Assembly (NCBI RefSeq): GCF_029167645.1
Contig: NZ_CP119147.1
Span: 2,418,001-2,482,000 of the forward strand
Source: Streptomyces sp. AM 2-1-1
Lineage (GTDB): Bacteria > Actinomycetota > Actinomycetes > Streptomycetales > Streptomycetaceae
Reading direction: 5' to 3'
Length of the DNA: 64,000 nt
Shown here: piece after piece, positions 37,607 to 52,802 of the stretch
How the letters are laid out: each line of letters begins with the position of its first letter
How positions within the stretch are numbered: the stretch's first letter is position 1
Made by a program: the position numbers and the translations under genes
Notes under the pieces: generated by a model
The model's database searches: none
Seen by the model: the letters and a program-made list of their open reading frames with translations, nothing else
Told to the model about the DNA's origin: nothing

Positions 37607-39004
37607 TCAGGCGGGCAGTCGGCGGGCCTGCTCGGTCCGGCCGGCCCAGGTGGCCCGGTGCGCCTCGGCGGCGGCCGCGGCCCGGCGCTGCGCGGAGGGC
37701 GGGACGGGCAGCGCACAGAGCCCTTCCAGGGTGTCCAGCATGTGCCCGCCGAAGCGTCGGCCGAGGGGGGTGAGCCGCCCGGAGCCCAGGGCCAGCAGGG
37801 CGGCGTCGCGGGCGGCGGTCCGCCAGCGGGCGAACCGGGCGTGCGCGTCGGCCCGCAGGACCGGATCGGGCTCGGTGACGCGGCGCCGGTCCCAGAACCG
37901 CGCCACGCCGAGGTGGGCGTACGCCCCGTGGACCAGGCCGAGCAAGGGACGTGGGTCGGGTCGCCAGGGCGCGTAGTAGAGCGGTCCGTCGCCCGGTTCG
38001 AGGAAGTCGAAGAGGTGGAGCAGGGCGGCGAGTTTGGTGTGCTGCATCTCGTGCGCCAGCGTGACGGCGAATCCGGCCGCGGACTCGGGCGGCGAGAGCG
38101 CCACGCACCCGAAGGTCTCGGCGCTGCTGCCGCTGACGCTGCCCCGGCCGGATCCGGCGAGCGGCACCAGCAGCCGGGGTCCGGCGGCGAGTTCGGCCCA
38201 GACCTCGGGGTGATCGGCGCGGAGCAGTGCGCGGGCGTCGTGCGCGAGCGAGGTCCAGCGGCGCCGCTGCGCCTCGGTGACGGCTCGGGGCCGGTCCGGC
38301 GCGTTCGGGAAGCAGGGCGCGTCCAGGGTGTCGAGCAGCAGCGGGGCTCCGGGGCCGAGGCGGGCGAGGAGCACGGGCCCGCGCCACCGGTCGTGGGTCC
38401 GGTACGGGTCGCCGGCGGGCACCACGAGCGGGCCCGGGCCGGGAGCCCCCGGTACGCGGAGCGTGGCGCGGCCTCCCGCCCCGACGCGCAGTTCGGCGGT
38501 GTCCCCGGCGCGGGCGCCGGGGAACCGGGCCCGGCCGAGCGCGGGCAGGGTCACCCAGGGGCCGGACACCGGCCAGCGCGTGCGGCCCGGCACTCCGGCG
38601 CGGGCCGCGCAGGCGGCGGCGAGCGCGGTGAGCCGGTGCACCGGCGGCTCCTCGCCGGCCGGTCCGCGCAGCAGGCGGGTGAGCAGGTCGAGCAGGGTGG
38701 GGCCGGCGGACGGGTGGGTGAGCACCGCGGCCACCGCCGCCGGCGCGGCCCGGTCCGCGGCGGCGATCAGCTCCCAGGCCTCGCCGGTCTGCCGGGCCAC
38801 GGCGCCGCCGGCGTCCAGGCCGGCCTCCCGCACCGCGTACAGGCAGGCGAGACGCCGGCTGTGTTCGGCGCGGGCCAGCAGGCGCAGCGCCTCCGCCCCG
38901 CCGCCACCCGCGGCGACGGCGTCGAACAGGGCGCCGGCCATGCGGTGCGGCGCCGGGCCCGTGCGGTTCCCGGGGGCGGGAGGGACGTGGGGCAGCGGGC
39001 TCAC
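37607..39004 (-). CDS. HExxH-motif peptide beta-hydroxylase of the Fxs-type RiPP cluster
   Basis: 465 residues from GTG 39004; the start overlaps the radical SAM stop as GTGA. The N-terminal half is Ala/Leu/Arg-rich and helical. The C-terminal half carries LAHEMQHTKLAALLHLFDF with HEMQH at residues 318-322, the mark of the mod_HExxH family found beside radical SAM peptide maturases. That family was first described from genome context, and members studied since, as I recall, are 2-oxoglutarate- and iron-dependent peptide beta-hydroxylases, not proteases. Coupling to the maturase gene says it acts on the same precursor. No signal peptide or membrane helix. It is convergent with the GH65 gene, 19 bases apart. 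Confidence 0.85.
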   Translation of the reverse strand: MSPLPHVPPAPGNRTGPAPHRMAGALFDAVAAGGGGAEALRLLARAEHSRRLACLYAVREAGLDAGGAVARQTGEAWELIAAADRAAPAAVAAVLTHPSAGPTLLDLLTRLLRGPAGEEPPVHRLTALAAACAARAGVPGRTRWPVSGPWVTLPALGRARFPGARAGDTAELRVGAGGRATLRVPGAPGPGPLVVPAGDPYRTHDRWRGPVLLARLGPGAPLLLDTLDAPCFPNAPDRPRAVTEAQRRRWTSLAHDARALLRADHPEVWAELAAGPRLLVPLAGSGRGSVSGSSAETFGCVALSPPESAAGFAVTLAHEMQHTKLAALLHLFDFLEPGDGPLYYAPWRPDPRPLLGLVHGAYAHLGVARFWDRRRVTEPDPVLRADAHARFARWRTAARDAALLALGSGRLTPLGRRFGGHMLDTLEGLCALPVPPSAQRRAAAAAEAHRATWAGRTEQARRLPA

Positions 39005-40242
39005 GCGGCTTCCCGGGGTGGGAGGGACGCGCCCTCCAGGTCCGCGGTGAGCCGGCCGCGGACCCGTCGGATGAGTGCGGTGAGGTCGGCGCAGTAGACG
39101 CTGGGCGAGGCGAAGCCGGTCGCCCGGTGGTAGCGGTTGGCGTAGTGGCCGCCGCCGCAGACCTGGTGGAGCGGGCAGGCGCGGCAGCGGTCGCAGAGTC
39201 CGTCGACGCCCCACTGCCGGGCCGCGATGCCGGGGTGGCGGAGCAGCGCGTCGAAGGAGTCGCGGTCCACGTGCAGCCCGGTGCCGGCGGCGCCGTGGTA
39301 GGCGGTGCGCAGGGTGTCGTCCTGGGCGAGCGATCCGTCGGTCTCGACCACCGCGTAGCGGACCGGGGCGAGCCCCATGGTCTCCGTGCGGGGCGTGGCA
39401 CCGAGCAGCAGGGCCAGCAGGTCGTCGAGGACGCGTACGCCGGTCTCCCGCACGGGGGCTCCGTACCAGCGTTCGAAGACCGCCCAGAGCCAGTCCGCGT
39501 AGGGGGTGCGCCGGCCGTCGGGCCGCAGTCCGGGCGGCGGGGCGTGCCAGTTGGCGAGCGGGAGGAGGAAGTCGATCGAGGGCGGCCGGTGTTCGAGGAG
39601 CTCCTCGTAGGTGCGCACGGGGTCGTTGCGGAGGTCGATCACGCACAACAGGCCGGAGAACAGGGGGCGGTAGGGCTCCGAGGCGAGCAGGCGCAGCGCG
39701 GCGGCGACCCGGGCGTGGCTGCCGCGTCCGTCGGCGGAGCGGCGGTGGCGGTCCTGGGCGGCACGGCCGCCGTCGGTGCTTACGCCGACCCGGATGCCCA
39801 GCTCCCCGCAGAGGTCGAGCCGCCGTTCGTCGAGGCGCGCTCCGTTGGTCTGGAGCGAGAGCCGGAGGTCCACGCCCCCGCCCACCGCGGCCCGCAGCAC
39901 ACGGGCGGTGCGGGCGAGTGCCTCGTCACCGGCGAGGAGGGGCTCCCCGCCGTGCAGGACGACGCCCGCCTCCCGCGTCCCGTGCGCGGCCAGGTGGGCG
40001 GCGATCCGTTCCGCGGTGCGGGCGAGGACGGCGGGGGCCATGGTGCGCGGCTGGGTCCGCCAGCTCTGGTCGCGCGAGCGGTACATGTAGCAGTAGTCGC
40101 AGGCCAGGTCGCAGCGGCTGTGCACCTTGAGGACGAAGGAGTGGAGCGGGTGGGGGGTCCAGCCGGCCGCCTCCCGGGCCGCCACGTCGCGTGCCCGGGG
40201 CCAGGGCGGCTCACCCGGGTGCCGTGCGGGTGCTCTGCTCAT
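39001..40242 (-). CDS. fxsB: FxsB-type radical SAM/SPASM cyclophane-forming peptide maturase
   Basis: 413 residues from ATG 40242 with GGAG just upstream (an earlier in-frame ATG has no site). The radical SAM cluster is CDLACDYC (C44, C48, C51) with YMY after it, as in FxsB proteins; GGEPLL and LSLQTNGA are the next family motifs. Near the C-terminus CDRCRACPLHQVCGGGHY and a last Cys in SVYCADL form the SPASM-type auxiliary cluster ligands. FxsB enzymes join the ring of an aromatic residue to a nearby side chain in the precursor. It shares a four-base overlap with the hydroxylase gene and is divergent from the precursor gene across 293 bases. Confidence 0.93.
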   Translation of the reverse strand: MSRAPARHPGEPPWPRARDVAAREAAGWTPHPLHSFVLKVHSRCDLACDYCYMYRSRDQSWRTQPRTMAPAVLARTAERIAAHLAAHGTREAGVVLHGGEPLLAGDEALARTARVLRAAVGGGVDLRLSLQTNGARLDERRLDLCGELGIRVGVSTDGGRAAQDRHRRSADGRGSHARVAAALRLLASEPYRPLFSGLLCVIDLRNDPVRTYEELLEHRPPSIDFLLPLANWHAPPPGLRPDGRRTPYADWLWAVFERWYGAPVRETGVRVLDDLLALLLGATPRTETMGLAPVRYAVVETDGSLAQDDTLRTAYHGAAGTGLHVDRDSFDALLRHPGIAARQWGVDGLCDRCRACPLHQVCGGGHYANRYHRATGFASPSVYCADLTALIRRVRGRLTADLEGASLPPREAA

Positions 40243-40535
40243 CCGCTCCCCCGGGGGTTCCTGCCGGCCCGTCCGGCGGCCCCGCCGGGCGGGGCGCGGG
40301 CACGGGCGCGCTCCGTTCGGCAAGTATTCGTTTCCGCGACGGCGCCGGTCAACATCACGAACCGGCCAACAGGCCTGTGCGACAGGGCGGTTATCGGCAA
40401 TCAGGCCGTGCGTCCGCTGCCGCGCGGAGCCCGGGCGGCGTTACGCTGACGGGGACGCGTTTCACCGGAACGCGTGCGCGCGACACGGGTCGTGGCCGCT
40501 CGGGGCGGCCCGACGGGACCTCCTGGAGTGACACC
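40243..40535. promoter_or_regulatory. Divergent promoter region between maturase and precursor
   Basis: 293 bases between fxsB (minus) and the precursor gene (plus). The stretch 40320-40400 is AT-richer and probably contains both promoters. I see no clean sigma-70 box or operator palindrome. Confidence 0.5.
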
Positions 40536-40754
40536 GTGGCAGCTACCGAGGGCTCCGGCTCCGTCGAGGGGTCCGCCGGTGCGGACGGTGATCCGGCTCC
40601 GGACGCCGAGTCCGTGGTCCTGGACGTCTCGCTGCTCGCGCCGGCGGATCTGGCCGCCCTGCCCCCTTCCGTGTTCGGGGAGACGCTGCGGCGGTTGCGC
40701 GACAGCTGCTTGGAGGGCGACCCGTTCGTCACCGGCCACATGGAGAGTGCGTGA
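40536..40754 (+). CDS. Precursor peptide of Fxs-type cyclophane RiPP, variant C-terminus
   Basis: 72 residues from GTG 40536 with GGAG seven bases upstream. The leader is acidic and Gly/Ser-rich for ~25 residues, then has the LDVSLLAPADLAALPPSVF segment, which fits the hydrophobic/Pro recognition region of FxSxx peptides. The end reads DPFVTGHMESA (Asp62-Ala72). Canonical members end in Phe-x-Ser-x-x; here Phe64-Val-Thr66 is followed by six more residues, and the terminal five are HMESA. Likely ring sites are Phe64 with Thr66 and perhaps His68 with Glu70, and the hydroxylase may act on the same tail. It is the only short ORF beside fxsB with a good ribosome binding site and a conserved-looking tail. 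Confidence 0.75.
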   Translation: MAATEGSGSVEGSAGADGDPAPDAESVVLDVSLLAPADLAALPPSVFGETLRRLRDSCLEGDPFVTGHMESA

Positions 40755-40875
40755 GCGGGTGACGCGGCCGGCGGGGAACGACCGGGGGAACACGCGCACG
40801 TACCCGCCCCGCACCGACGCATCCCTCGTACCGTCGTGTCCGTCCTGTCGCCGTACCGCACCGAACGGAGTGGCC

Positions 40876-43800
40876 ATGCCAGGCATCTCTCACCCCGCTC
40901 CGCCGGGCCCGTTCGCCGTCTTCTTCACCACCTCGGAGAGCCTGGGCCTGAGTACCACCCTGCGCAACGTGGCGGACGTGCTCGCCGAGGGCAATCGCAG
41001 CGTGCTCCTGGTGAACGGGCGGGGGCCCGGCCGGGGCGACAGCGGGCAGGTGCCGGACCCGGTGCCGGGGCAGGTGGCCACCACGGCGCGGACCACCCCC
41101 GACACGCTCACCGGTCTCGCCCGGGACCCGTCGGCGCTCCGCTACGACCACGTGCTCGTGGAGGCGCCGCTGCCGGACGCCCCGGGTGCGGTCCACCCCG
41201 GCGCGCTCGCGGAGTTCGCCGACTCCCTCGTCATCTGCTTCGCGCTCACCGCCTGGTCCATCGACGGGGCCGCCGCCCTCGCCGACGACCTGGACTCCCA
41301 CCGGGGTGGCCGGACCGTCACGATGCTCACCCTCGGCCTCCGCAGCGACATCGGGGTGCGCGACCGGTTGCGGGACGCCCGCGAGCGGGTGCGCCGGAGG
41401 TTCGCCCCGATCGCCCAGGCACGCGGGGAGACCGGGCTGCCGTTCCTGGAGATCCCGTACAACCCGCTCTACATGGACAGCCGCAGCCTCGTCGTGGAGA
41501 GCGAGGTCATCGGCAACGTCACCGGAATGCGTCCCTACTACGAGCGGGTCGCCGACCGGCTCCGCGCCCTCCAGCCCGCCCGGCTCACCGACGTCGTCCT
41601 GGTCCACGCGGCCCGCCACGCGTCCTGGGCCGCCTGGATCGAGGACCGGCTCGCCGACCGGGGCGTACGGACCGAACTGCGCCGGGGCGACACCTACGCG
41701 GGGGAGCGCCCCGCGCCCGGTACGGCGCTGCTCTTCCTCTCCCCGCGCGACGCGGACGACGCCCTGCTGCGGCAGATCGGCGCGCTCTCCCACACCGACG
41801 TGCGGATCGTCCTGGTGGACGAGCCGGTCCCGCACACCGAGGCCGCGCACCACGAGCGGATCGACCTGCGCGACGCCACCGAGGGCGACGCGCTGCGCAT
41901 CCTCTGCACCGCCCTCGGCCTGCCCCCGGGGCCGGACCGCGCGGGACCGGGCGGCGCGCCCTACCCCAGGCTGCCCGAGGTCATCAACATCCCCCCGCGC
42001 AACCGTGAGTTCACCGGTCGGGACGCCGTACTGACCTCGCTGGACGAGGAGTTGTGGGCGGCGGGCCGCGAGGGTGCCTGCCTGGTGCTCCACGGCGCCG
42101 GCGGCTCGGGCACGAGCGAGACCGCCCGCGAGCTGTGCCACCGGATCGGCGCCCGTTACGACCTGGTCTGGTGGGTCCGCGCCTGGGAGGGCGAACGGAT
42201 CCGCCGGGAGCTGCATCAGCTCGCCGGCCGCCTCTCCACGACCGAGGAGCTGACCGGACGCGCCGCCCCCGGGGACGACGACGCCGCCGTCGCCCGGCTG
42301 CTCGCCCGCCTGACCCGCCCCGAAGCGGGTGCGGGACGGTGGCTGATCGTCTACGACGGGGTCACCGACCCGGCCGGACTGCGCGGGCTGCTGCCCGTAC
42401 CGCACGAGCGCGGCCACGTCCTGATCGCCACCCGCCGAGAGCCGGTACCGGAGCCGTCGGCCGGCGCGGGGGGAAGGGGCGCGGACCGGTCCGCGCCGCG
42501 TTTCGTCCCCTTCGCCCTGGCGCCCATGACGCCCGAGGAAGCCCGCGTCCTGCTGGGCGACCACCTCCCCGACATCACCGCCGACCAGGCCCTGCGGGTC
42601 GGCAGCGTCACGGAGTTCGTACCGCAGGCCCTGCGGCTGGCGGCGCACTGCCTGGCGCAGCGGGCCGCCCTGCACCGCGGCGTCGACCACATGGGCCAGG
42701 ACACCGCGAACCGGGCGGCCGTGGACGACCTGCTGACGCTCTACCGCACCCACAAGTCGGAGATGCTCGCCGGGGCGGCGGCGGTCTCCTCCGTCGCCGT
42801 CATGGTGCGGGTGGCGCTGGAGGTCGCGCGGTCCACGCCGGGCGCGGACGCCTGGAAGGCGGAGAACCCGGCCCACGAGCCCCTCGGGTGGCTGCTCGAC
42901 GCCGCGTCGCTCCTCACCGGCCGGGGCATGGGGCTGGAGCTGCTGCGCTCGCCGCGCATCCTGTCCGAACTGGCCCGTGACGACACGGCCGGCCCGTTGC
43001 CCGTCGACCGCTCGGCGCGCGACCGCACCGACGACGCGCACCTGCCCGACGAGCACATGGTCAGCGTCGCCCTCTGGTCGCTGGCCCAGGTCGGCCTGCT
43101 CGAAGTGGACTTCGACCGCAGGCAGCAGCCGCTGGCGCAGCACCACGGGCTGCGCGACCTGATCCGCGCGGGCATGGAGCCCGCCGCACAGCAGCACGTC
43201 GAGTCGGTGCTGCGCACCACCCTCGCCGAGTACGGCCCCGAGAAGAACCAGGACCTGCCCGCCGACTGGGCCCGCGAGGTGTACTCCCTGCGGCTGTGGG
43301 AGGACACCCGCCCCCGGGTGCGCCGCTCGCTGCTGCGCCACCTCCACGCGCTCAGCGGGCGCGGCGAGAACGCCGACCTGGAACGGGTCCTCGACATCGC
43401 TGGCCGGGCCCGGGAGGCCTGGTGGACCGAGGGTGACGAGCAGTCGCCGGAGTACCTGCGGCTGCTCAACCACACCGCCCGCGCCCACCGGATGCGCGGC
43501 GACTACGCCGACGCCCGCCGCCGCTCGCAGGAGGCGCTGCGCGGACACCGGCGGCTGCTGGGCCCCACCCACCCGCGCACGCTGCTCTCCGCCGACTCGC
43601 ACGCGGCGATCCTGCGCGCGCTGGGACGGTTCGACGACGCGCTGATGGAGCTCAGGCCCGCCATGGACGGGATCACCCTGCTGCTCGGCGACAACCACCC
43701 GGCCACCCTGCAGATCGAGCACAACCTCGCCCTCACGGAGGCGCTCACCGGCCGGGTCGCGGCCGCCACGGGCCGGATGCAGAAGCGCTTCCGCTACCGG

Positions 43801-44583
43801 CAGGCGGTCGGCGGCGAGGACGACCCGGTGGCCTGGAACTCGGCCGAGCTGCTCGCCCATCTGTACCGGGCGACCGGGCGGGCCGGCGAGTCGCGGGACC
43901 TGCTGCGCCGCCGTCTGCGGCGGCACGGTGACACCTGGGACATGACCCGCCTCTCGACGGAGGTCGGGCTCGCCGTCAGCGAGCGCCGGCTCGCCGACGC
44001 CCGCCCGGCCAACCTGGACCCCGTGTACGGCTTCGAGATGGCGTACGAGCGCGACCAGCGGGCCCTGCAGCTGTACGTCTCGCGGTTCGGCGCGGAGCGG
44101 CCCGAGACGCTCCGCTGCCGGTTCAGCTTCGCCGCCGACCTGCACGCCCTGAACAAGGTGGACGAGGCCGTGCGGCAGGCCGCGCAGTGCGGTGAGTCGC
44201 TCGCCGCGCGGTACGGCCCGGGGCATCCGTACACCGCGCTGAACCAGGTGCGGCAGGGGGTGTACCTGCGGGCGGCGGGCGAGCCCCGGGAGGCGGCGGA
44301 GCTGGGCCGCGCCGCCCTGGGGCTGCTGGTCGCCAAGGTCGGCGAGGGCCACTTCTGGGTCGCCACCGCCGAGAACTCGCTCGCCGCCACCCTCGCGGCG
44401 GACGGCAGGACCGGGGAGGCCGCGGCCCTCACCCTCCGCGCCCTGCGCCGGCTGCGCGACCTGGGGGTCTCGCACCGCCCGGACGGCCGCCGGGTGCAGG
44501 CCCACCACGCCCGGCTGACGACCGGCGACACGTCCGTGCCGGAGCCCCGGTCGGGATACGACATCGATCTGGAACTGCCCTGA
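40876..44583 (+). CDS. fxsT: FxsT-like large protein: degenerate ParA-like, TIR-like, NB-ARC-like and TPR regions
   Basis: 1235 residues from ATG 40876 (GGAG five bases upstream). Residues 1-~230 resemble the ParA/MinD-like head of FxSxx-system TPR proteins, but the P-loop is FFTTSESLGLSTT (16-28) without the KGGxGR core. Residues ~238-350 read like a TIR-like domain (VLVHAARHASWAAWIEDRL, LLFLSPRDADD). An NB-ARC-type ATPase starts near 371 (NIPPRNREFTGRDAVL), with P-loop GAGGSGTS at 407-414, where Thr413 replaces the Lys. The C-terminal half (about 840-1190) is tetratricopeptide repeats (RRLLGPTHPRTLLSADSHA and similar units). Its job is unknown; it is the usual partner of FxSxx peptides. Both lost lysines suggest ATP is bound weakly or not at all. 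Confidence 0.88.
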   Translation: MPGISHPAPPGPFAVFFTTSESLGLSTTLRNVADVLAEGNRSVLLVNGRGPGRGDSGQVPDPVPGQVATTARTTPDTLTGLARDPSALRYDHVLVEAPLPDAPGAVHPGALAEFADSLVICFALTAWSIDGAAALADDLDSHRGGRTVTMLTLGLRSDIGVRDRLRDARERVRRRFAPIAQARGETGLPFLEIPYNPLYMDSRSLVVESEVIGNVTGMRPYYERVADRLRALQPARLTDVVLVHAARHASWAAWIEDRLADRGVRTELRRGDTYAGERPAPGTALLFLSPRDADDALLRQIGALSHTDVRIVLVDEPVPHTEAAHHERIDLRDATEGDALRILCTALGLPPGPDRAGPGGAPYPRLPEVINIPPRNREFTGRDAVLTSLDEELWAAGREGACLVLHGAGGSGTSETARELCHRIGARYDLVWWVRAWEGERIRRELHQLAGRLSTTEELTGRAAPGDDDAAVARLLARLTRPEAGAGRWLIVYDGVTDPAGLRGLLPVPHERGHVLIATRREPVPEPSAGAGGRGADRSAPRFVPFALAPMTPEEARVLLGDHLPDITADQALRVGSVTEFVPQALRLAAHCLAQRAALHRGVDHMGQDTANRAAVDDLLTLYRTHKSEMLAGAAAVSSVAVMVRVALEVARSTPGADAWKAENPAHEPLGWLLDAASLLTGRGMGLELLRSPRILSELARDDTAGPLPVDRSARDRTDDAHLPDEHMVSVALWSLAQVGLLEVDFDRRQQPLAQHHGLRDLIRAGMEPAAQQHVESVLRTTLAEYGPEKNQDLPADWAREVYSLRLWEDTRPRVRRSLLRHLHALSGRGENADLERVLDIAGRAREAWWTEGDEQSPEYLRLLNHTARAHRMRGDYADARRRSQEALRGHRRLLGPTHPRTLLSADSHAAILRALGRFDDALMELRPAMDGITLLLGDNHPATLQIEHNLALTEALTGRVAAATGRMQKRFRYRQAVGGEDDPVAWNSAELLAHLYRATGRAGESRDLLRRRLRRHGDTWDMTRLSTEVGLAVSERRLADARPANLDPVYGFEMAYERDQRALQLYVSRFGAERPETLRCRFSFAADLHALNKVDEAVRQAAQCGESLAARYGPGHPYTALNQVRQGVYLRAAGEPREAAELGRAALGLLVAKVGEGHFWVATAENSLAATLAADGRTGEAAALTLRALRRLRDLGVSHRPDGRRVQAHHARLTTGDTSVPEPRSGYDIDLELP

Positions 44584-44666: not shown

Positions 44667-45761
44667 GTGGCAGCCCCCTCGCATCCCCCGTCGCACCCCC
44701 TCCCGGGCCGACGGACCGACACGCTCCGCGAGTTCCACTGGACCCGGGACCGCCACGGCCGGATCACGGCGCTGTGCGAGGAAGCCGTCGCCGGGCAGCC
44801 GGCCGTCCGCTCGCTGGCCCACTACAGCAGCGGCATCCTCGACTTCGCGGTGTGCGCGGCCGGCCGGTCCCCGTTGAGCGGCCTGATCGCCGAACCCGAC
44901 GAGGAGTTGCAGGACGAGGCACTGCCGGGCAGCCGGCTGCTGCTGTGCACCCAGGACCTCGGTGCGGCGCTCCGCCCGCTGGGGACCGGCGAGTTGATGC
45001 GTACGGTCGTCGCCAACGCGCGCGGCGGCCTGTGGGGCGGCCGGATCAAGCCGGGGGAGTTCCTGGCGGCCCTCACCGACGACCCGCACGGGGTGCGCCC
45101 GATGGACGCGGCCATGAACCGGCTGACCACCCGCATCCGGGTCGATGTCCACTCGCTGCCCGACGAGTTGCCGGGCGGCGCTCCGGAGGCCGGGCCCGTG
45201 CTCCGGGCGGGCGGTTCCCCGGAGTCCTCGCTGCGGGTCGACTTCGGCACGGGGGCCGGCCCGGACACGGGGACCGAGGCACGCCTGCGCGACCTGTGGC
45301 ACCGGCACGTGGACGACGTCGACCTCCAGTACGCGGCGTACTACCGCGACTGGACCCTGGTGTGCGCCGGCGACACCTTCGACTCGCCCGCCCTCGGGCC
45401 GCGCTTCATCGACGTCAGCGTACGCACCCGGCGCACCGCCTACCGGGACCTCTCCCGGGTCCTGCGCGGCCATCTGGCCCGGCTCACCGACGCCCTGCAC
45501 CTGGTCGCCCCGGCGACCGACGGCCACCCGCCGCTGGACCGGCTCGTCCTCGACGTGCAGGAGGGGGCGGTGTACGTCCTCTGGGTCTCACCCCGCGAGT
45601 TCGTCATCGGCGTCACGCTGGACCAGCTCCGGGTCGCCCCGGCCGAGCACCGGCTGCGGCGGCTCGTCCGCGAGGTGCGCGGACTGTCCGGAGGGCGCGG
45701 GATGGACGGGACGGACGGGGTGGGCGAGCCGCGCGACCTCACGGCGCGGCCGGCACGCTGA
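44667..45761 (+). CDS. Protein of unknown function downstream of fxsT
   Basis: 364 residues from GTG 44667 with AAAGG upstream. It lies 83 bases after fxsT in the same direction, and is probably co-transcribed. I recognise no family. It starts with a Pro/Arg-rich tail, then a mixed alpha/beta region. No signal peptide, membrane helix or P-loop is visible. Its 3' end overlaps by 23 bases the convergent NTPase gene, which implies that the two gene sets were fixed together here. Confidence 0.75.
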   Translation: MAAPSHPPSHPLPGRRTDTLREFHWTRDRHGRITALCEEAVAGQPAVRSLAHYSSGILDFAVCAAGRSPLSGLIAEPDEELQDEALPGSRLLLCTQDLGAALRPLGTGELMRTVVANARGGLWGGRIKPGEFLAALTDDPHGVRPMDAAMNRLTTRIRVDVHSLPDELPGGAPEAGPVLRAGGSPESSLRVDFGTGAGPDTGTEARLRDLWHRHVDDVDLQYAAYYRDWTLVCAGDTFDSPALGPRFIDVSVRTRRTAYRDLSRVLRGHLARLTDALHLVAPATDGHPPLDRLVLDVQEGAVYVLWVSPREFVIGVTLDQLRVAPAEHRLRRLVREVRGLSGGRGMDGTDGVGEPRDLTARPAR

Positions 45762-48060
45762 GCGCCCCCCACACCTCCTCCGCGAGCAGCTCGACGGTGC
45801 GGGCGGCGGTCAGCGGGTGCGGGGGCCCGGCGTTGTCCAGCCGGTGCACCGGCAGCACCTCGACCGCGTACGCGTACTCCCGGCAGATCCGGCGCAGTTC
45901 GCCCAGCTGCGCCTCGGTCGGGGCGGCCGGGGACCGGGCGTGGTACCAGTCCGCCACGGCCCGCCGGAAGTCCACCGTGAGGGACCTCACCAGGGTCACG
46001 CAGCCCAGCAGGCCGAGCTCGGCGGGGGTGGTGGCGCCGCGCCGGCCCACCGCCCGGCCGGCCATCCGCCGGCCGGCGGCGTCGAGGACCGCGAGCACGT
46101 CCAGGAAGCTGCTCCTCACGGCCCCCGGAAGCGCCTGGGTACCGGCCTCGTCCTCGGCGGGGCCGCCCGGCCCCGGGAAGTCCGCCGAGGTGCCCGGCGC
46201 GGACCGCTGCGCCGTCGCCCCGGTCCGCGCCTCGGTCGCCAGCTCGGCCATCGCGCGGCTCAACCCGTCCAGCCGGTCGCTCTGCTGGGCGAGGTCACGG
46301 CGCATCCGCTCGCCCAGCCGGTCGAGGTCCTCCTCGCGCCGGCCGTCCACGATCCGGCGTTCGAGCTGCCGCAGCGCCTCGTGCACGCGCCGGGGGAAGT
46401 CGCCCTGCCGGTACACCAGCGGCCGCGACCCGATCACCCGGGCGAGCCGGTCCTGCATGGCGTTGGCCGCCCGCCCGTTGACGACGACCAGCGGCTCGAA
46501 CCGGGCCGGGCTCACCGCGCCGCGCAGCCCCTGCACGTGGGCGGCGACACGTTCGACGTCGTCGGCGACGAGGACGGAACGGGTCAGGATCACCGCGAGG
46601 TGGGCGTTGGTGGCCGGGGCGATCCAGTGCAGCACCTCCTCCGGGACGCCCGCGGGCGACGAGAGCCGGGACGCGACCGGATCGCGGGAGGCGATGCGCC
46701 ACTGGCCGAGCCCCAGTGCCTCGTGCACCTCCGCCTCCACCTGCCGCCGGGAGACCTTCTCGTGCAGCTCGCGCACGGCGCGGAGCGCGTTCTGGGCCGG
46801 CACCTCCCGGACCGCGCCGTCCTCGTCCTCGCTGATCTGCCAGGCCTGCCGGCAGGTCTTGAGCACCTCGCGCGGCACCCCGTCCGTCAGCTCGTGCAGC
46901 AGCCGGAGCGCGTCCGGGCCGAACGGGCCTGAGGCCCGCAGCCCGCGCAGCGGCGGCTCGGCGCTCTCCGCCGTACCGACGTAGGTGTCGACCAGGCGGA
47001 CGGTGAGCTCCTCGCTGAGCCCCGCCGGCCACAGCTGCACCAGCCGCTCGTGCACGCTCGGGCGCAGCGCCTGGAGGCCGCGCGGGGAGACGCAGAAGAC
47101 CAGCAGGCCGCCCCGGCTGGCGAAGATGTTGACCAGGCGTTCGAAGGCGTCCACGAAGACCCGCCCGGTGTCGGCGGGCCAGTCGAGCACCTTCTCCAGC
47201 GAGTCCAGCAGCAGGACGTACGGCTTGCCGACCCTGCCGTGCAGGAACCCCTGGACCGCCAGCGCGTCGAAGACCAGGTCGATGCCGGCCGCCGCACCGG
47301 CCGGGCCGACGGCCCCGGGCTGCGGGCCGATGGACTCCGTGATGCCGCGCTCGCGCAGGGGCTCGGCGGGCTCCATGCCGTTGAGCCACTTCCAGACCAT
47401 GCGGGTGTGCCGGGGGTCCAGCAGCAGGGCCAGCGCGGTGGCGAACCTGCGGTGCTCGGTGACCTCTCCGAGCGTGCCGCGCAGGTCCGCGTGGATCACC
47501 TCGGGGTCGTACCGCAGCGCCGAGACCACCTTGGCCGGGTCGAGCGTGTGGTCGCGCAGCCCCGCCGCGATGTCGTCCAGGTCGCCGAGGCGCGGGTCGG
47601 GGCCCTGCTCGCCGACCCGCCGGGCCGTGACGTAGGCGTAGTAGTCCCGGACCAGGTCCTCGAAGGCGCGGCGGCCCGCGTCGGTGTCCCCGGGGCCGCG
47701 CAGCCGGTCCCGGTACATCCGTCCCATGTCCTGCATCGGCTCGTCCACGATCCAGGTGGCGGGGCGTTCCGGCCGGGCGCCGAGGAGGGCGTAGACCTCG
47801 CGCAGGGCGTGGCTCTTGCCCAGGCCGAAGTGGCCGACCAGGGCGATCGCCCGCCCGCGCCGGCCGCCCGGGGGCCGCTCGGTGAGGTAGTCCTCGACCA
47901 GCTGGGTGAGTTCGTCGATGGTCGGTGTGCGGACGGTGGCGCTCCCCGAGTCCGACGCTTCGACGGGGACGTCCCCGAGGTCCGCCGAGGGACCGAGGCG
48001 GACGACCGGGATCACCGGGAAGGGGTTGCCGCGCCGGCTCTCTCCACTGTCTGGGGCCAC
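45739..48060 (-). CDS. P-loop NTPase (STAND/AAA-like), Fxs-adjacent
   Basis: 773 residues from GTG 48060 with GAGGAG upstream. Walker A is GHFGLGKSH (76-84), and PYVLLLDSLEKVLD is a good Walker B (Asp-Ser-Leu-Glu). An Asp-rich N-terminal tail of about 50 residues precedes it. The region after the core is long and helical (about 400-770) with no recognised repeats. It looks like a regulatory STAND- or AAA-type ATPase. It is followed upstream on the same strand by a second P-loop ATPase gene (48170-49240) 109 bases away. The same two-ATPase arrangement next to FxsT-like proteins is suggestive but I cannot name it. Confidence 0.8.
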   Translation of the reverse strand: MAPDSGESRRGNPFPVIPVVRLGPSADLGDVPVEASDSGSATVRTPTIDELTQLVEDYLTERPPGGRRGRAIALVGHFGLGKSHALREVYALLGARPERPATWIVDEPMQDMGRMYRDRLRGPGDTDAGRRAFEDLVRDYYAYVTARRVGEQGPDPRLGDLDDIAAGLRDHTLDPAKVVSALRYDPEVIHADLRGTLGEVTEHRRFATALALLLDPRHTRMVWKWLNGMEPAEPLRERGITESIGPQPGAVGPAGAAAGIDLVFDALAVQGFLHGRVGKPYVLLLDSLEKVLDWPADTGRVFVDAFERLVNIFASRGGLLVFCVSPRGLQALRPSVHERLVQLWPAGLSEELTVRLVDTYVGTAESAEPPLRGLRASGPFGPDALRLLHELTDGVPREVLKTCRQAWQISEDEDGAVREVPAQNALRAVRELHEKVSRRQVEAEVHEALGLGQWRIASRDPVASRLSSPAGVPEEVLHWIAPATNAHLAVILTRSVLVADDVERVAAHVQGLRGAVSPARFEPLVVVNGRAANAMQDRLARVIGSRPLVYRQGDFPRRVHEALRQLERRIVDGRREEDLDRLGERMRRDLAQQSDRLDGLSRAMAELATEARTGATAQRSAPGTSADFPGPGGPAEDEAGTQALPGAVRSSFLDVLAVLDAAGRRMAGRAVGRRGATTPAELGLLGCVTLVRSLTVDFRRAVADWYHARSPAAPTEAQLGELRRICREYAYAVEVLPVHRLDNAGPPHPLTAARTVELLAEEVWGALSVPAAP

Positions 48061-48169
48061 GATGGCACTCCTCGTGCTTCCGATCGGGGTCTGTCCGGCT
48101 GGTGCGGCGGGCCGGGGCGCGGATGCGCGTGCGGCGGTGCGGGCAGGGGTGCGGGGCGTGGATCCGGTG

Positions 48170-49240
48170 TCAGGGGGCGCGGCCCAGGTCGCTGCGGGTC
48201 CGCCGGCTGTGGGCGCGCACCTGCTCGGCCAGGTCCTCGCCGGTGATCCGTACCGGCCGGCCTGCCCGGGTGTGGGCCTCCGCCGCCGCGTGGAAGATCT
48301 GCCGCAGCTCCCGTACGTCGCCCGGCTGCCAGCGGGCCGCCCGGGCCCGGAGGACCGCTTCCCGGAGGGTCAGGTCGTCCGCCGGGTCGTCGGGGTCGGG
48401 GTGGTCCGAGCGGGCGCTCCGCCCGAACGTCACGGCGTCGTCGGGCTGGAGCGGGCCGAGCGCGAGGTGGGTGAAGGCCCGGTCGGCCGCCAGCTCCCGG
48501 ACCACCTCTCCGGCGGTCTCGCTCGCGCCGTGGCTGACCTCGACGAAGAGCAGGATGCGGCTCTGCGCGTGGCTGAGACAGGTCATGAGGAACTTGCTCC
48601 GCACGCCCGGGTCCTTCCACTCGATGTGCGGGACCACCGCGAGCAGCAGGGCGTTCTCCTCGGCCAGCAGGGCGCTGATCGCGGCGAACGCCTTCGAGGT
48701 GCTCGCGCCGTGCAGCACCGGGTCGACGCCGTCGGCCGTCGGCAGGCCGGTGCGGAGCGCGGCCACGATCTTGTCGCGGATGGTCTCGTTGATCGCCGCC
48801 GTCGACGCGAAGTCGCCGTTGTCGTCGACGCAGATCCCGCGGCCGTCGTTCACGTAGCCGGCGGTCATCGCCACCACGTGCCGCAGCGCCCGGGCCGGCG
48901 GCTCCGCGCGGGCCGCCGCGTTCTCGATGACCTGCTGGGCCCGGTGGATGCAGCGGTGGATCAGCGTGGTCTTGCCCATCCCGACCGGGCCGGTCACCAC
49001 GACCAGGTGCCCCCGGTCCACCTGGGGGCTGACCATGTGAGCGAGCCGTCGCAGGCACTCCTCGAAGAGGTCCAGCTGGTCCCGCGCGTGGTCGACGTCC
49101 ACCCACTGGCCGACGTGGCTCGCGTCGTCCCACGGAACCAGCGGATGGTCGTCCAGGGGAGGGCTGACGAAGCCCGGCATGGTCCGGTCGCTTCCCGGGA
49201 CCCGCACCCCGTAGGGGTTCTCCCGCTCGGATGCCGTCAT
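48170..49240 (-). CDS. P-loop ATPase (AAA-like), coupled to upstream membrane protein
   Basis: 356 residues from ATG 49240 (GGGAGGGG upstream). The start overlaps the stop of the preceding gene as ATGA. Walker A is GPVGMGKTT (84-92); the Walker B position reads RILLFVEVSH, with Glu in place of the usual Asp. The frame stays open upstream for about 930 further codons as antisense of other genes; that extension is not coding. Likely one component of a multi-protein NTPase module with the 773-residue protein and the membrane protein. Confidence 0.8.
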   Translation of the reverse strand: MTASERENPYGVRVPGSDRTMPGFVSPPLDDHPLVPWDDASHVGQWVDVDHARDQLDLFEECLRRLAHMVSPQVDRGHLVVVTGPVGMGKTTLIHRCIHRAQQVIENAAARAEPPARALRHVVAMTAGYVNDGRGICVDDNGDFASTAAINETIRDKIVAALRTGLPTADGVDPVLHGASTSKAFAAISALLAEENALLLAVVPHIEWKDPGVRSKFLMTCLSHAQSRILLFVEVSHGASETAGEVVRELAADRAFTHLALGPLQPDDAVTFGRSARSDHPDPDDPADDLTLREAVLRARAARWQPGDVRELRQIFHAAAEAHTRAGRPVRITGEDLAEQVRAHSRRTRSDLGRAP

Positions 49241-50178
49241 GCGCCCCCTCCCGGCGTACGGCGGGCGAACCGCTCGCGCACGGTACGCCAACGCCAGTGC
49301 ACGGCACGCCGGTCCAGCCCGGCGAGCGCGCCCAGCTCCCTGTCCAGGCGGAGCCGCACGCCGTGCGCCTCCCGGAGGCGCGCCTGCCTGCCGAGAAACC
49401 CGCCGCCGTCCTCGGCGGCGAGCGGCCGGGCCAGCGGCAGCCCTTCGGTCAGCCGCCGCGCCTCCGCCCGCCGCGCGGCGGGGCCGGATATCCGGGCGAG
49501 GGGCGCGGTGAGGGTCTCGCGCGCGGCCAGCACCGCGGCGTGGTCTCCGTACCCCTCGGATTCGTACGCGGCCAGATAAGTCCCCACAGCCGTACGGTAC
49601 GTCAGCTCGCCCAGCGCCAACTGCTGCCTGTTCGCCCGTCTTTCGGCGTTCACCCGCTCCGAGGCCTGGCCGGCGAGGGTGAGCAGGGCGCCGGCCACCA
49701 GCAGGGGCAGCGAGGTGAGGAGCTCCGCCGGCCAGCCCTTCTCCTTCTTCTCCCCGGCGCCTCCCGGCGTCCCGGCGGCCGCCGCCATCAGCGCGGAACA
49801 GGCTCTCGCGAAGTCGTCGCTCCGCGGCCCGCCGGCCCACTCCTCCACCGTGACCGGCCGGTCCGCACCCGCCGGCAGCACCCGGCCGGGCCCGGGGGAA
49901 CGGCGGTCGAGCACACCCAACCGCGTCCCCGCGGCGACGAGTTCGGCCCGGTGCGCCGGGTCCAGACAGTAGACCAGCAGGACGTCGCGCCCGGGGTCCG
50001 TGGACACGGCCCGCAGGACGGAGGCCGCGAAGGCGGAGGATGCGGAGTATTCCGGGGTAGCGGCCGGTGCGGCGTCCGCCGCCGGGGCGAGGAGGAGCGG
50101 CAGGGCCACCGCGACCACCGTCAGCAGTCCGGCTGCGCGGGGTGGTCCCGCCCGCCGCCGCTCGCGCGTCTGCCCCAT
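49237..50178 (-). CDS. Membrane-anchored protein with extracytoplasmic domain, unknown family
   Basis: 313 residues. A signal-peptide-like hydrophobic helix (~16-37) is followed by an external segment (~38-145) that resembles no family I know; a second helix (LLTSLPLLVAGALLTLAGQA, ~152-171) then passes to a cytoplasmic Arg/Ala/Leu-rich helical region (~172-313). The stop overlaps the ATPase start as ATGA, so membrane protein and ATPase are made together. The arrangement suggests a sensor that passes a signal to the ATPases. Confidence 0.72.
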   Translation of the reverse strand: MGQTRERRRAGPPRAAGLLTVVAVALPLLLAPAADAAPAATPEYSASSAFAASVLRAVSTDPGRDVLLVYCLDPAHRAELVAAGTRLGVLDRRSPGPGRVLPAGADRPVTVEEWAGGPRSDDFARACSALMAAAAGTPGGAGEKKEKGWPAELLTSLPLLVAGALLTLAGQASERVNAERRANRQQLALGELTYRTAVGTYLAAYESEGYGDHAAVLAARETLTAPLARISGPAARRAEARRLTEGLPLARPLAAEDGGGFLGRQARLREAHGVRLRLDRELGALAGLDRRAVHWRWRTVRERFARRTPGGGA

Positions 50179-50244
50179 GTGCGTCCTTCCGTCCGCCGGT
50201 CCTCGCGTGCCGGCCGTCGCCGCCCCGGCGGCCGCCGGTCCCGT

Positions 50245-51507
50245 TCACGCGGCGGCCCGTCCGCTGGATTCCTGTCCCGGAGCCTCGCCGAGCGGGTCCG
50301 GGGCCGCTGCGCGGGGGTCGGTGTCCGACGGTCCGTCGCAGGAGGAGTGACGTTCTTGGTCCGCCCGGGGTTCCCCGCGCGTCCCCGGCGGCCCCGCACC
50401 GCGCGCGAGCAGCGACTGACCGGTCGCGTGGAGCAGGTTGACGGTCACGACGGCGGGTCCGACGATGGCGACCGTGCCGGGGAAGTCGTGTTCCAGGGCG
50501 AGGGCGATCAGCACGGCGGTGATGCCGTTCTGCTGACCGAGCCCCAGCACGATCCGGTCCCGCCGCTCCAACCCGCGTACGAAGAGCGGCATGACGCACA
50601 GGGCGACCAGCGCCTGGGCGCCGAAGGCCGTGGCGCCGAGCAGCAGCCCGGGCCACAGCGCGACCCCTTGGGCGAGGAAGAGCCCGAGTACCAGGGAGGC
50701 GGCGAGGAAGGCGGTGGCGACCGCACGGCCCAGCGTCTTCGCGAAGACCCGTCGGCGCACCACCAGCCCGGCCACCGCCACCGCGAGCATCAGCGTGCCC
50801 ACCGCCGCGAGCACCAGCATCAGCACGACCAGGAGCCCCGCCGCCACCTCCCCCGCGCGCCGGAACGGCGGTACGGACACGAGCGCGGGCGCCGCCCGGC
50901 GCCAGGCCCACCACAGCAGCACCACGCCGGCCAGCAGTGCCGCGTTCATCGCGAGTCCGGTCAGCCACCCCCCGGCGCCGCCCCCGGCGATCGCCGGCGC
51001 GCCCCGGTGCCCCGCGGCCGCATAGGCGTACCCCGCCGCGTACAGCGTCAGGAGGACGGTCATCGGGTCGTCGAAGGCCGCCCACGCCATCAGCAGCGAG
51101 CGGGCCCGCTCGGACATCCTCCCGCGCCGGTCGAGCGCGGCGACGGAGAGCGGGTCGATCTGCGCCACCGCGATGCCCAGCACCAGATGGGCGGGCCGCC
51201 CGAACGCCAGCACCATCACCCCGGCGATGAGCGCCGCCTTCAGCACCACGCCGAGGGTCACCGCCGCGACCACTCCGCCCAGGTCGGCCCGTAACGCCGC
51301 GAGGTCGATCCCGTAGGTGCTTCCGTACAGCCCCACGGCCAGCAGGAGACTCGTCCCGAAGGTGTACCCCCAGGTACCGGCCAACGCCGACGGGTCGACG
51401 GCGAGACCGCACAGCACCCCGGCCACCAGCGCGCCCACGGCGCCGAGCACGATGCCGGGAACGGCCGGCGGCACTTTCCGCCGCACCGCGCCCCACCACT
51501 TCCGCAC
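50245..51507 (-). CDS. Cation:proton antiporter (CPA1-like)
   Basis: 420 residues from GTG 51507 with AAGGGGG upstream; the frame is open further up but lacks a site. About 12 hydrophobic helices. The pair of acidic motifs QIDPLSVAALD and AWAAFDDPMTV marks the ion-binding site of CPA antiporters, which exchange sodium or potassium for protons. The last ~50 residues are hydrophilic with several Cys and Asp. It lies 66 bases ahead of the membrane/ATPase operon on the same strand, so they could be co-transcribed. Confidence 0.85.
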   Translation of the reverse strand: MRKWWGAVRRKVPPAVPGIVLGAVGALVAGVLCGLAVDPSALAGTWGYTFGTSLLLAVGLYGSTYGIDLAALRADLGGVVAAVTLGVVLKAALIAGVMVLAFGRPAHLVLGIAVAQIDPLSVAALDRRGRMSERARSLLMAWAAFDDPMTVLLTLYAAGYAYAAAGHRGAPAIAGGGAGGWLTGLAMNAALLAGVVLLWWAWRRAAPALVSVPPFRRAGEVAAGLLVVLMLVLAAVGTLMLAVAVAGLVVRRRVFAKTLGRAVATAFLAASLVLGLFLAQGVALWPGLLLGATAFGAQALVALCVMPLFVRGLERRDRIVLGLGQQNGITAVLIALALEHDFPGTVAIVGPAVVTVNLLHATGQSLLARGAGPPGTRGEPRADQERHSSCDGPSDTDPRAAAPDPLGEAPGQESSGRAAA

Positions 51508-51998
51508 CGCGCACCCCCTTCCCCGCGCGACCGCCCCCTCGCGACGCCCGGTGGCAGCCGCATCGTAGGGGCACCAACGCCACGGCGACAGGTGCATCTC
51601 GCCCTGGCGCAGGCACGCCGACCCGAATCAGCCACGCCGCCGAACCCGGCCGGGCCGGCGCACCGGCCGCCCCCCGGACCCTGCCCGGGCCCCGTCGGGA
51701 ACCGGCCGCTCCGCCCGGCGCCACCCCGCGTCCGGTCCGCCCCGGCGCCACCCGCGTCGGGTCCGGCCCGCTCCGGCCGCCCTCCTCGGCGTCCGTCCGG
51801 CTCCGCCGCCGGGCCGGTGTGGTCCTTCCTGGACGATGCCCGCCCGGAGCGGCCGCCGAACCCGGGGGCGCCGGGGAGTCGGGGGCGCCCGGGGGCGGGG
51901 GCACGAGGGGGTCGGGGGCGCCCGCGGAACCGCGCTCCGCCCCGGCCGACGCGTGCGCCGGGTCGAAGCCGCGGGCGGGTGCTGGGAGGATGGCTGGC

Positions 51999-52802
51999 AT
52001 GGACATCCGGCGCAGGAACAACATCACCGTCACCGGCAACCCGCGGGGTCCGGTGGTGGTGCTGGCGCACGGATTCGGGTGCGACCAGAACCTGTGGCGC
52101 CTGACCGTGCCGGCGCTGACCGAGGACTACCGCGTGGTGCTCTTCGACTACGTCGGGTCCGGCGGCTCCGACCTGTCCGCCTGGACCGAGGAGCGCTACT
52201 CCTCGCTCGAGGGGTACGCGCAGGACGTGGTGGAGGTCTGCGAGGAGCTGGATCTCGAAGGGGCGGTGTTCGTGGGCCACTCGGTCAGCGCCATGGTCGG
52301 GGTGATGGCCGCGAAGAAGGCGCCCGAGCGGATCGGGGCGCTGGTGATGGTCGCCCCGAACCCCCGGTACGTCGACGAGGGCGGCTACCGGGGTGGCTTC
52401 AGCGCCGAGGACATCGACGAGCTGCTGGCGTCGCTGGAACTGAACTATCTGGGCTGGTCCTCCGCGATGGCCCCGATGATCATGGGAAATCCGGAGCGGC
52501 CCGAGCTGGGCGAGGAACTGACCAGCAGTTTCTGCGCCACCGACCCCACCATGGCCCGTGCTTTCGCCCGCACCACGTTCCTCTCCGACAGCCGCCGGGA
52601 CCTGGCGGGCGTCACCGTGCCGACGCTGGTGCTGGACTGCACCGAGGACATGATCGCGCCCCCGGAGGTCGGTGCGTACGTCCACCGCGCCATCCCCGGC
52701 TCCACCCTCGTCACCCTCGACGCGACCGGCCACTGCCCCCAGTTGTCGGCTCCCGACGCCACGAACGCCGCCCTCACCGCGTTCCTGGCCGGTTTGGAAT
52801 GA
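51999..52802 (+). CDS. RsbQ-like alpha/beta hydrolase
   Basis: 267 residues from ATG 51999 with GGGAGGA upstream (an ATG three codons earlier is poorer). It starts MDIRRRNNITVTGNP, typical of RsbQ proteins. The nucleophile Ser lies in GHSVSAMVG, the oxyanion region in LAHGFGCDQNLW, the acid in LDCTEDMI and the His in TGHCPQL. In Bacillus, RsbQ is an essential partner that lets phosphatase RsbP respond to energy stress. The next gene starts inside the stop codon and encodes a PAS-PP2C phosphatase, so the pair is kept. Confidence 0.92.
   Translation: MDIRRRNNITVTGNPRGPVVVLAHGFGCDQNLWRLTVPALTEDYRVVLFDYVGSGGSDLSAWTEERYSSLEGYAQDVVEVCEELDLEGAVFVGHSVSAMVGVMAAKKAPERIGALVMVAPNPRYVDEGGYRGGFSAEDIDELLASLELNYLGWSSAMAPMIMGNPERPELGEELTSSFCATDPTMARAFARTTFLSDSRRDLAGVTVPTLVLDCTEDMIAPPEVGAYVHRAIPGSTLVTLDATGHCPQLSAPDATNAALTAFLAGLE

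What the first reader, a model, noticed from the sequence alone, without database searches (positions are those of the whole stretch)
37607..44583. Variant Fxs cyclophane RiPP cluster with a hydroxylase and a non-FxSxx precursor tail
FxsB-type maturase and FxsT-like partner are present, but the only plausible precursor (40536-40754) ends DPFVTGHMESA, not Phe-x-Ser-x-x. A HExxH-type peptide hydroxylase is translationally coupled to the maturase. Together they predict a peptide with a Phe-based ring (Phe64 to Thr66, perhaps His68 to Glu70) plus hydroxylation. Family roles are established; the ring sites and the hydroxylated residue are inference.
Basis: partly seen in the sequence, partly recalled or inferred. 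Interest (0 to 1): 0.85.

Follow-up and report, generated by a model that had tools for sequence, protein, structure and literature searches.

The report
Two-motif Fxs peptide in nine-gene locus
A conserved Streptomyces gene set makes a small peptide that is probably stapled through a ring and hydroxylated, beside ATPases and a regulator rather than an obvious exporter, so it may be an internal signal instead of an antibiotic.

Summary
The 72-residue precursor is real: a profile search gave 56 proteins, and the tail pattern [FY]V[TA]G[HFY]xE[SG] holds in 56 of 57 rows, window included (51 exactly FVTG[HFY]xES). The tail is not simply non-FxSxx. The FxSxx profile aligns without gaps and its Phe position falls on His68, so H68-x-E70-S-A is the FxSxx register and F64-V-T66 is the extra motif. 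The gene set is also larger: nine genes in convergent order, adding a roadblock/LC7-fold protein, two P-loop NTPases, a membrane protein and an antiporter-like protein, kept in two overlapping panels of relatives. A diverged clade keeps most of it, with tails such as FTADYQDLI. Five of nine genomes checked have no FxsB by profile, yet keep the hydroxylase and a precursor. I predict a cyclophane from aromatic residue 68 to residue 70 made by FxsB, and HExxH hydroxylation near F64-x-T66, in a peptide tied to a STAND-type ATPase. Gene content and conservation are shown; the chemistry is inference. New variant of a known kind.

The parts
37607..39004 (-). aKG-HExxH-type peptide hydroxylase, 465 aa; HEMQH and PWRxDPRP intact
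   Evidence: TIGR04267 172 bits, cut-off 40; PDB relatives 22nu_A (120 bits) and ChlH 8s5f_A (27 bits); H318, E319, H322 invariant in 15 aligned sequences, two short ones (L022, L024) left out
39001..40242 (-). FxsB-type radical SAM/SPASM cyclophane maturase, 413 aa
   Evidence: TIGR04269 467 bits, cut-off 370; ChlB 9gm3_A 231 bits; Cys 44, 48, 51, 353, 356, 362, 384 invariant in 17 aligned sequences
40536..40754 (+). precursor peptide, 72 aa, GTG start
   Evidence: TIGR04268 25.1 bits, cut-off 28; 56 proteins by profile; conserved place between fxsB and fxsT
40725..40733 (+). tail motif 1: F64-V65-T66 (second ring or hydroxylase site)
   Evidence: F 55 and Y 1 of 56 subfamily rows; T 54 and A 2 of 56
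40737..40745 (+). tail motif 2: H68-M69-E70, in the FxSxx register (predicted FxsB ring)
   Evidence: residue 68 falls on TIGR04268 position 40 of 44; H/F/Y 47/8/1 and E 56 of 56
40876..44583 (+). FxsT: inactive MinD/ParA-like + TIR-like + STAND ATPase + TPR protein, 1235 aa (first two domains read by eye and by analogy with PMC7159879)
   Evidence: NF040586 566 bits, cut-off 300; TPR_12 and, under its cut-off, AAA_16
44667..45761 (+). orf364: roadblock/LC7-fold protein, probably two copies in tandem
45739..48060 (-). NTP773: P-loop NTPase, 773 aa, conserved member of the locus
   Evidence: tblastn in 15 of 16 named loci and 6 of 6 panel relatives; P-loop residues invariant in 13 aligned sequences
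48170..49240 (-). NTP356: AAA/STAND-like P-loop NTPase, 356 aa
   Evidence: AAA_16 and nSTAND5, both under their cut-offs; 15 of 16 named loci, 6 of 6 panel relatives
49237..50178 (-). TM313: predicted membrane or exported protein, 313 aa
   Evidence: hydrophobic segments by eye; 15 of 16 named loci, 6 of 6 panel relatives
50245..51597 (-). antiporter-like membrane protein, 450 aa
   Evidence: weak match to Na+/H+ antiporter 4cza_A, E 0.00063 and by profile E 0.0014; no Pfam match; 14 of 16 named loci, 6 of 6 panel relatives, mostly as partial matches where the stretch ends

Best explanation
This is a Streptomyces subfamily of the Fxs system with a two-motif core peptide. FxsB (radical SAM/SPASM) binds the leader (residues about 26-56) and joins the aromatic ring of residue 68 (His here, Phe or Tyr in relatives) to the side-chain beta carbon of residue 70 (Glu), the same place where FxSxx peptides have Phe and Ser. 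The stand-alone HExxH protein, an Fe/alpha-ketoglutarate oxygenase, then hydroxylates a residue in or near F64-V-T66; a second F64-T66 ring by FxsB is possible. The peptide is probably not exported as an antibiotic but serves inside the cell as a signal or effector of the STAND-type ATPase FxsT, with the roadblock-fold protein, the two NTPases and the membrane proteins as the rest of the machine. Shown: genes, tail conservation, FxSxx register, nine-gene conservation, absence of FxsB from five related genomes. Inferred: every chemical step, their order, and the role of the peptide.
For: Register: TIGR04268 aligns without gaps and its position 40 (Phe in P0061, AGFQSSI) falls on H68 or its equivalent. 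Position 68 stays aromatic, H 47, F 8, Y 1 of 56, while position 69 takes eight different residues; on the orf364 tree the Phe68 loci L031/L034 and L033 sit in different clades, each beside His68 loci. Three diverged FxsB-positive loci keep Phe at 64 and an aromatic at 68: FTADYQD (L082), FTTNHDK (L115) and FTTDYTQ (L117). In the loci checked, non-aromatic residues at 68 appear only without FxsB: Gln in L116, Thr in L083. F64-x-T66 is kept in 4 of 5 FxsB-less loci that keep the hydroxylase. The hydroxylase has intact HExxH and is related to ChlH, while the second Fxs system of the same genome has a fused copy without HExxH. ATPase coupling: NF040586, and PMC7159879 section 24 describes stand-alone actinobacterial peptide-processing systems with an AP-ATPase carrying an inactive MinD/ParA-like domain.
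Against: No mass or structure data. Glu as acceptor is not documented for FxsB-type enzymes in the passages I saw (PMC11002830 gives MscB Phe-Ser, and HaaB/YhhB His-Ala and His-Arg). In the diverged FxsB-positive loci position 70 is D, K or Q, not E, and two of the three tails run on by several residues. The four FxsB-less loci with F64 are one closely related group (hydroxylases 86-93% identical), and three of them also keep His68, so they separate the two motifs only weakly; the fifth (L083) has Leu at 64. ChlH is reported to need a preinstalled cyclophane (PMC12636437), which sits badly with hydroxylation in FxsB-less genomes. The window's own precursor scores below the TIGR04268 cut-off. 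NTP773 and NTP356 relatives also occur without matched Fxs genes (L084). Lack of an exporter in the locus does not exclude export by a general transporter.
Confidence: 0.55

Rival explanations
1. Two consecutive three-residue cyclophanes, F64-V-T66 and H68-x-E70, both made by FxsB, with the hydroxylase acting on a residue inside one ring. (Not exclusive of the best explanation, which leaves the second ring open.)
For: Both motifs start with an aromatic residue in all 56 subfamily rows and in L082, L115 and L117. ChlB is called a multiple cyclophane synthase in a reference title.
Against: F64-x-T66 survives in 4 of 5 FxsB-less loci. FxSxx relatives with VSAF or VAGF lack an aromatic at position 64 but share the V-[S/T/A]-[A/G] stretch, so T66 need not be an acceptor.
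Confidence: 0.35
2. One reading: the main ring is Phe64-Thr66, and H68-x-E70 is a recognition element or the hydroxylation site (beta-hydroxy-His).
For: Phe is the donor for MscB, and ChlH is reported to hydroxylate His and Asp.
Against: The FxSxx register falls on residues 68 and 70. Position 68 switches among H, F and Y, as expected of a ring donor, not of a His-specific hydroxylation.
Confidence: 0.2
3. The HExxH protein is a protease or an oxidative backbone-cleaving enzyme that releases the C-terminal peptide, as first proposed for such zincin-like proteins.
For: PMC7159879 calls the zincin-like protein a peptidase. PflC/PosC, HEXXH enzymes, do oxidative backbone cleavage, and PflC shows proteolysis when the leader is absent (abstract and passages of PMC12636437).
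Against: PMC13060819 and PMC12636437 (passages) describe characterised members as alpha-ketoglutarate hydroxylases. The family model is named peptide beta-hydroxylase.
Confidence: 0.15
4. An exported antimicrobial triceptide with the neighbouring genes as immunity and transport.
For: Membrane proteins lie in the conserved locus.
Against: No transporter or peptidase family reached its cut-off in Pfam for the nine genes (ABC_tran scored 16.8 against 25 on the NTP356 P-loop) or in NCBIfam for the seven scanned. The ATPase/roadblock content resembles signalling or conflict systems.
Confidence: 0.15

Closest known systems
FxSxx-COOH / FxsB systems (TIGR04268, TIGR04269, NF040586)
   Same: Leader profile, FxsB maturase, FxsT ATPase/TPR partner; the core lies in the same C-terminal register.
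   Different: Tail H/F/Y-x-E-S-x in place of F-x-S-x-x, plus an added conserved Phe four residues upstream; extra conserved genes (roadblock-fold protein and a four-gene set on the opposite strand).
ChlB/ChlH (ChlBH) fused radical SAM and aKG-HExxH enzymes
   Same: The same two enzyme families (231 bits to ChlB; 27 bits to ChlH).
   Different: Separate genes here; different precursor; HExxH protein kept in related genomes without FxsB.
Stand-alone actinobacterial peptide-processing systems of PMC7159879 (section 24 read in full; otherwise passages)
   Same: HExxH (zincin-like) protein, small precursor, AP-ATPase with TPRs and an inactive MinD/ParA-like domain.
   Different: That section lists FxSxx, RxD, acidic and FtsH-associated tails; this tail fits none of them as written. 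A word search of its main text found no antiporter or exchanger.
Triceptides (MscB, XncB, OscB, HaaB, YhhB)
   Same: Predicted aromatic-x-x three-residue crosslink by a SPASM radical SAM enzyme (PMC11002830 passages).
   Different: Glu at the acceptor place and a second upstream aromatic motif; crosslink not demonstrated.

Membership tests
FxSxx-COOH precursor (TIGR04268) | score over the curated cut-off of 28 bits | tested here: not met
   Window 25.1 bits; the five other precursors tested, four of this subfamily, all score over it (32.3-43.2)
FxSxx-COOH precursor (TIGR04268) | C-terminal F-x-S-x-x | tested here: not met
   Window ends H-M-E-S-A; Glu at the Ser place in 56 of 56 subfamily rows, six of which carry one or two extra end residues
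FxSxx-COOH precursor (TIGR04268) | encoded beside FxsB | tested here: met
   Window, 6 of 6 panel relatives, 16 of 16 named loci; not so in five loci of the diverged clade
FxsB (TIGR04269) | score over cut-off; radical SAM and SPASM cysteines | tested here: met
   467 bits against 370; seven cysteines invariant in 17 sequences
FxsB (TIGR04269) | forms a cyclophane in the precursor | not testable with these tools
   needs MS/NMR
aKG-HExxH peptide hydroxylase (TIGR04267) | score over cut-off and intact HExxH | tested here: met
   172 bits against 40; HEMQH, H/E/H invariant in 15 sequences
aKG-HExxH peptide hydroxylase (TIGR04267) | alpha-ketoglutarate-dependent hydroxylation | not testable with these tools
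   needs enzyme assay
FxsT (NF040586) | score over cut-off | tested here: met
   566 bits against 300
VMAP/vWA-MoxR ternary conflict system (PMC7159879) | a vWA component | tested here: not met
   No vWA match in Pfam among the nine genes at E 0.1; only the stand-alone form is resembled. VMAP itself was not tested with a model of its own
Roadblock/LC7 fold (orf364) | fold match over a whole domain | tested here: met
Roadblock/LC7 fold (orf364) | second copy, residues about 190-341 | tested here: inconclusive
   Similar order of helices and strands in the model; the aligner's rows span residues 21-165 only

The most novel reading that the evidence does not exclude
A peptide with two separately enzyme-addressed motifs (FxsB ring at an aromatic-x-Glu/Asp site, HExxH hydroxylation at F-x-T) is the internal ligand of a STAND-ATPase/roadblock/antiporter machine, and some lineages have dropped the ring while keeping the hydroxylated peptide and most of the machine. 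This would make the modified peptide a regulatory part, not a secreted product.
Probability: 0.3. Interest if true: 0.85.

Novelty: new variant of a known kind. Interest (0 to 1): 0.62.

Why it matters
Fxs systems are named in annotation, but in the one held paper I found that discusses their role (PMC7159879) the function of the modified peptide is a prediction. A conserved nine-gene setting, natural loci with and without FxsB, and a tail with two clean motifs make both the chemistry (which residue is ringed, which is hydroxylated) and the biology (ligand of an ATPase machine or exported product) directly testable. It would also add Glu as an acceptor and His as a donor for FxsB-type enzymes.

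Tried and rejected
Pfam gave nothing for the precursor, the HExxH protein, orf364, TM313 or the antiporter-like protein, although the protein search listed a precomputed PF27839 on the precursors. PADLOC was run on six of the nine proteins and gave two weak matches, both to NTP356, so no link to a listed defence system is claimed. NCBIfam was not run on TM313 or the antiporter-like protein (one search failed and was not repeated for them). Literature: 'FxsB cyclophane' found no paper; 'FxSxx radical SAM' found one; 'triceptide' found 16 papers, seen as a listing, of which PMC11002830 was read in passages; a broad search for cyclophane enzymes was mostly unrelated; other listings are. The key papers on ChlBH, ChlB and triceptide His/Tyr motifs are not held; what I say of them comes from other papers' text. 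I first thought F64-T66 the FxSxx-equivalent ring because precursors such as those of L019 and L020 have Phe nine residues from the end, and dropped this after the alignments. A first view that FxsB loss removes both aromatic motifs was dropped when L112-L114 proved to keep F and H. The precursor of L123 was not identified. A Foldseek search of orf364 could not be run; the VIA-align look was. A model of NTP773 could not be started. Searches were translations in the wrong frame, replaced by 9 and 10.
Full report
What is there. The window lies in a 7.2 Mb genome; genomes listed as its own genus share contig lengths with records titled Streptomyces, so it is a Streptomyces. Reading from 37607: HExxH protein (-), FxsB (-), a divergent gap, precursor (+), FxsT (+), orf364 (+), then a convergent minus-strand set NTP773, NTP356, TM313 and antiporter-like, ending at 51597. 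Family matches: FxsB TIGR04269 467 bits, HExxH TIGR04267 172 bits, FxsT NF040586 566 bits, all over their cut-offs; precursor TIGR04268 25.1 bits, under its cut-off of 28.

The precursor is a gene. In 295 same-genus genomes, 12 had a match at E 0.01 or better, of which 7 (own included) were strong (below 1e-10); three of the weaker ones (L008-L010) are precursors of other Fxs systems, and the other two (L011, L012) lie in long reading frames and were not followed. A profile of seven sequences found 56 proteins in a 5.8-billion database, only the 8000 best candidates being scored; one, P0013, 97% identical and without a source, probably stands for the window's own cluster. A scan of genome contigs found 16 named loci, 15 titled Streptomyces and one Streptosporangium nondiastaticum. 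The panels overlap: L013/L023, L015/L026, L017/L028 and L018/L030 lie on contigs of the same length, which leaves 18 distinct relatives in the two panels, and several loci repeat named ones. The order HExxH, FxsB, precursor, FxsT, orf364 is kept in 6 of 6 panel relatives and 15 of 16 named loci; the sixteenth, L037, ends at a contig end inside fxsT, and L022's HExxH gene is cut by a contig end.

The tail. In 57 rows (56 hits plus the window) one, P0061, is an ordinary FxSxx peptide. In the other 56: position 64 F 55, Y 1; 65 V 56; 66 T 54, A 2; 67 G 56; 68 H 47, F 8, Y 1; 70 E 56; 71 S 53, G 3; position 69 takes eight residues (the pattern used required V and G, and every row fitted it). Exactly FVTG[HFY]xES is found in 51. 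Codons at 64 and 65 are all TTC and GTC in 22 loci (two of them repeats), so synonymous change says little there, while the Gly67 codon and residue 69 vary.

Register. TIGR04268 matches P0061 from 11-53 to model 2-44 and the five subfamily rows tested without gaps, so that model position 40, Phe in FxSxx, lies on His68 or its equivalent. MAFFT gives the same register for four FxSxx peptides against two of this subfamily, with EPVSAFTSA and DAVAGFQSS beside DPFVTGHMES. Other Fxs loci have F-S-S-A-L (own genome, L045), F-N-S-A-L (L049), W-G-F-N-S-A-F, W-G-F-D-N-S-F and W-G-F-D-A-V-L (L046-L048), and W-E-S-A-V or W-Q-S-A-L (L085, L086, L090). Thus an aromatic residue in the Phe position is the common feature of these, and this subfamily uses His, Phe or Tyr there with Glu two residues on, and adds Phe four residues before.

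Diverged relatives. orf364 was sought in 295 same-genus genomes (14 with a match) and 391 genomes of the order (25 with a match); NTP773 in 295 (10 with a match). A second clade at about 40% identity keeps most of the layout: L082, L083, L112-L117. TM313 was detected only in L082 of these eight, so in the other seven the locus has seven or eight recognised genes. Tails: FTADYQDLI (L082), FTTNHDK (L115), FTTDYTQ (L117), FTTNHEK (L112-L114), FTTNQEK (L116), FLLNTDTPDD (L083); position 70 is thus D, K or Q in the three with FxsB. No FxsB was found near L083, L112, L113, L114 or L116, nor anywhere in those five genomes by profile at E 1e-10, whereas the other 4 of the 9 genomes searched have one (completeness of the five listed as 99-100%). 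P0087-P0089 have the L083 type of tail, but their neighbourhoods were not seen. A tree of orf364 puts L083 on its own long branch and the other four beside FxsB-positive L115 (support for the four as a group only 83/54), so two or more losses are likely. All eight loci had a HExxH-protein match; I read HExxH directly in L082 and L083 only. Simpler Fxs loci (L085-L090, L119-L122) have FxsB and FxsT, mostly with a distant orf364 and in some a matching antiporter-like gene, but showed no HExxH protein or NTP773 at E 1e-4. L123, from another family of the order, has FxsB and HExxH on the same strand as FxsT; its precursor was not identified. L084 has NTP773 and NTP356 relatives (26% and 40%, the latter over 68 residues) with no matched Fxs gene in 18 kb, so these NTPases are not tied to Fxs genes everywhere.

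Mechanism. MscB joins Phe to Ser beta carbon, and HaaB and YhhB use His as donor (PMC11002830 passages; that MscB belongs to the FxsB family is recalled from its InterPro number). aKG-HExxH enzymes hydroxylate His, Asp, Phe, Gln and Pro (PMC13060819, PMC12636437 passages). From register, aromatic-only change at 68 in the subfamily, and its loss in 2 of 5 FxsB-less loci, I put the ring at 68-70. The retention of F-x-T in 4 of 5 FxsB-less loci points to the hydroxylase for 64-66, though these four are close relatives and the fifth has Leu at 64. A second ring remains possible.

Role. PMC7159879 (section 24) proposes the processed peptide as a toxin or signal coupled to an AP-ATPase with TPRs, and mentions stand-alone systems with an inactive MinD/ParA-like domain; the degenerate P-loop in the FxsT N-terminus (SESLGLSTT, read by eye) fits. 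No transporter or peptidase family reached its Pfam cut-off in the nine genes. I therefore favour an internal signal. The same genome has a second Fxs system at about 5.867 Mb with a fused FxsBH in which HExxH is absent.

Novelty. A new variant of the Fxs kind: not strictly FxSxx-COOH (cut-off and motif not met), yet homologous. NCBI already names many relatives FxSxx-COOH. None of the papers listed by my searches was seen to describe this tail; I did not search for the tail letters, and the library lacks most subscription journals.

Noticed in passing
window 44667-51597: Five further conserved genes, outside the finding: roadblock/LC7-like protein (probably tandem), two P-loop NTPases, a membrane protein and an antiporter-like protein.
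   Followed up: yes
L045 (own genome, about 5.857-5.877 Mb): A second Fxs system with an FSSAL precursor and a fused FxsBH frame of 758 aa without HExxH.
   Followed up: partly
L083, L112, L113, L114, L116: Related loci without FxsB, in genomes with no FxsB by profile, that keep the HExxH protein and a precursor.
   Followed up: partly
P0085, P0087-P0089 and L083: Precursors with a long C-terminal extension ending in a conserved RSFS[PQ]LIY; unexplained.
   Followed up: no
L085, L086, L090: Fxs precursors ending W-x-S-x-x instead of F-x-S-x-x, in loci where no HExxH protein was matched.
   Followed up: no
L084: Relatives of NTP773 and NTP356 with no matched Fxs gene within the 18 kb fetched.
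   Followed up: no
PDB 22nu_A: Closest solved relative of the hydroxylase is named radical SAM core domain-containing protein; probably the HExxH part of a fused enzyme.
   Followed up: no
window 51836-54109 and 55540-56760: Reading frames with SpoIIE-phosphatase domains to the right of the locus; the panel stretches to the right of the locus gave no match to them.
   Followed up: no
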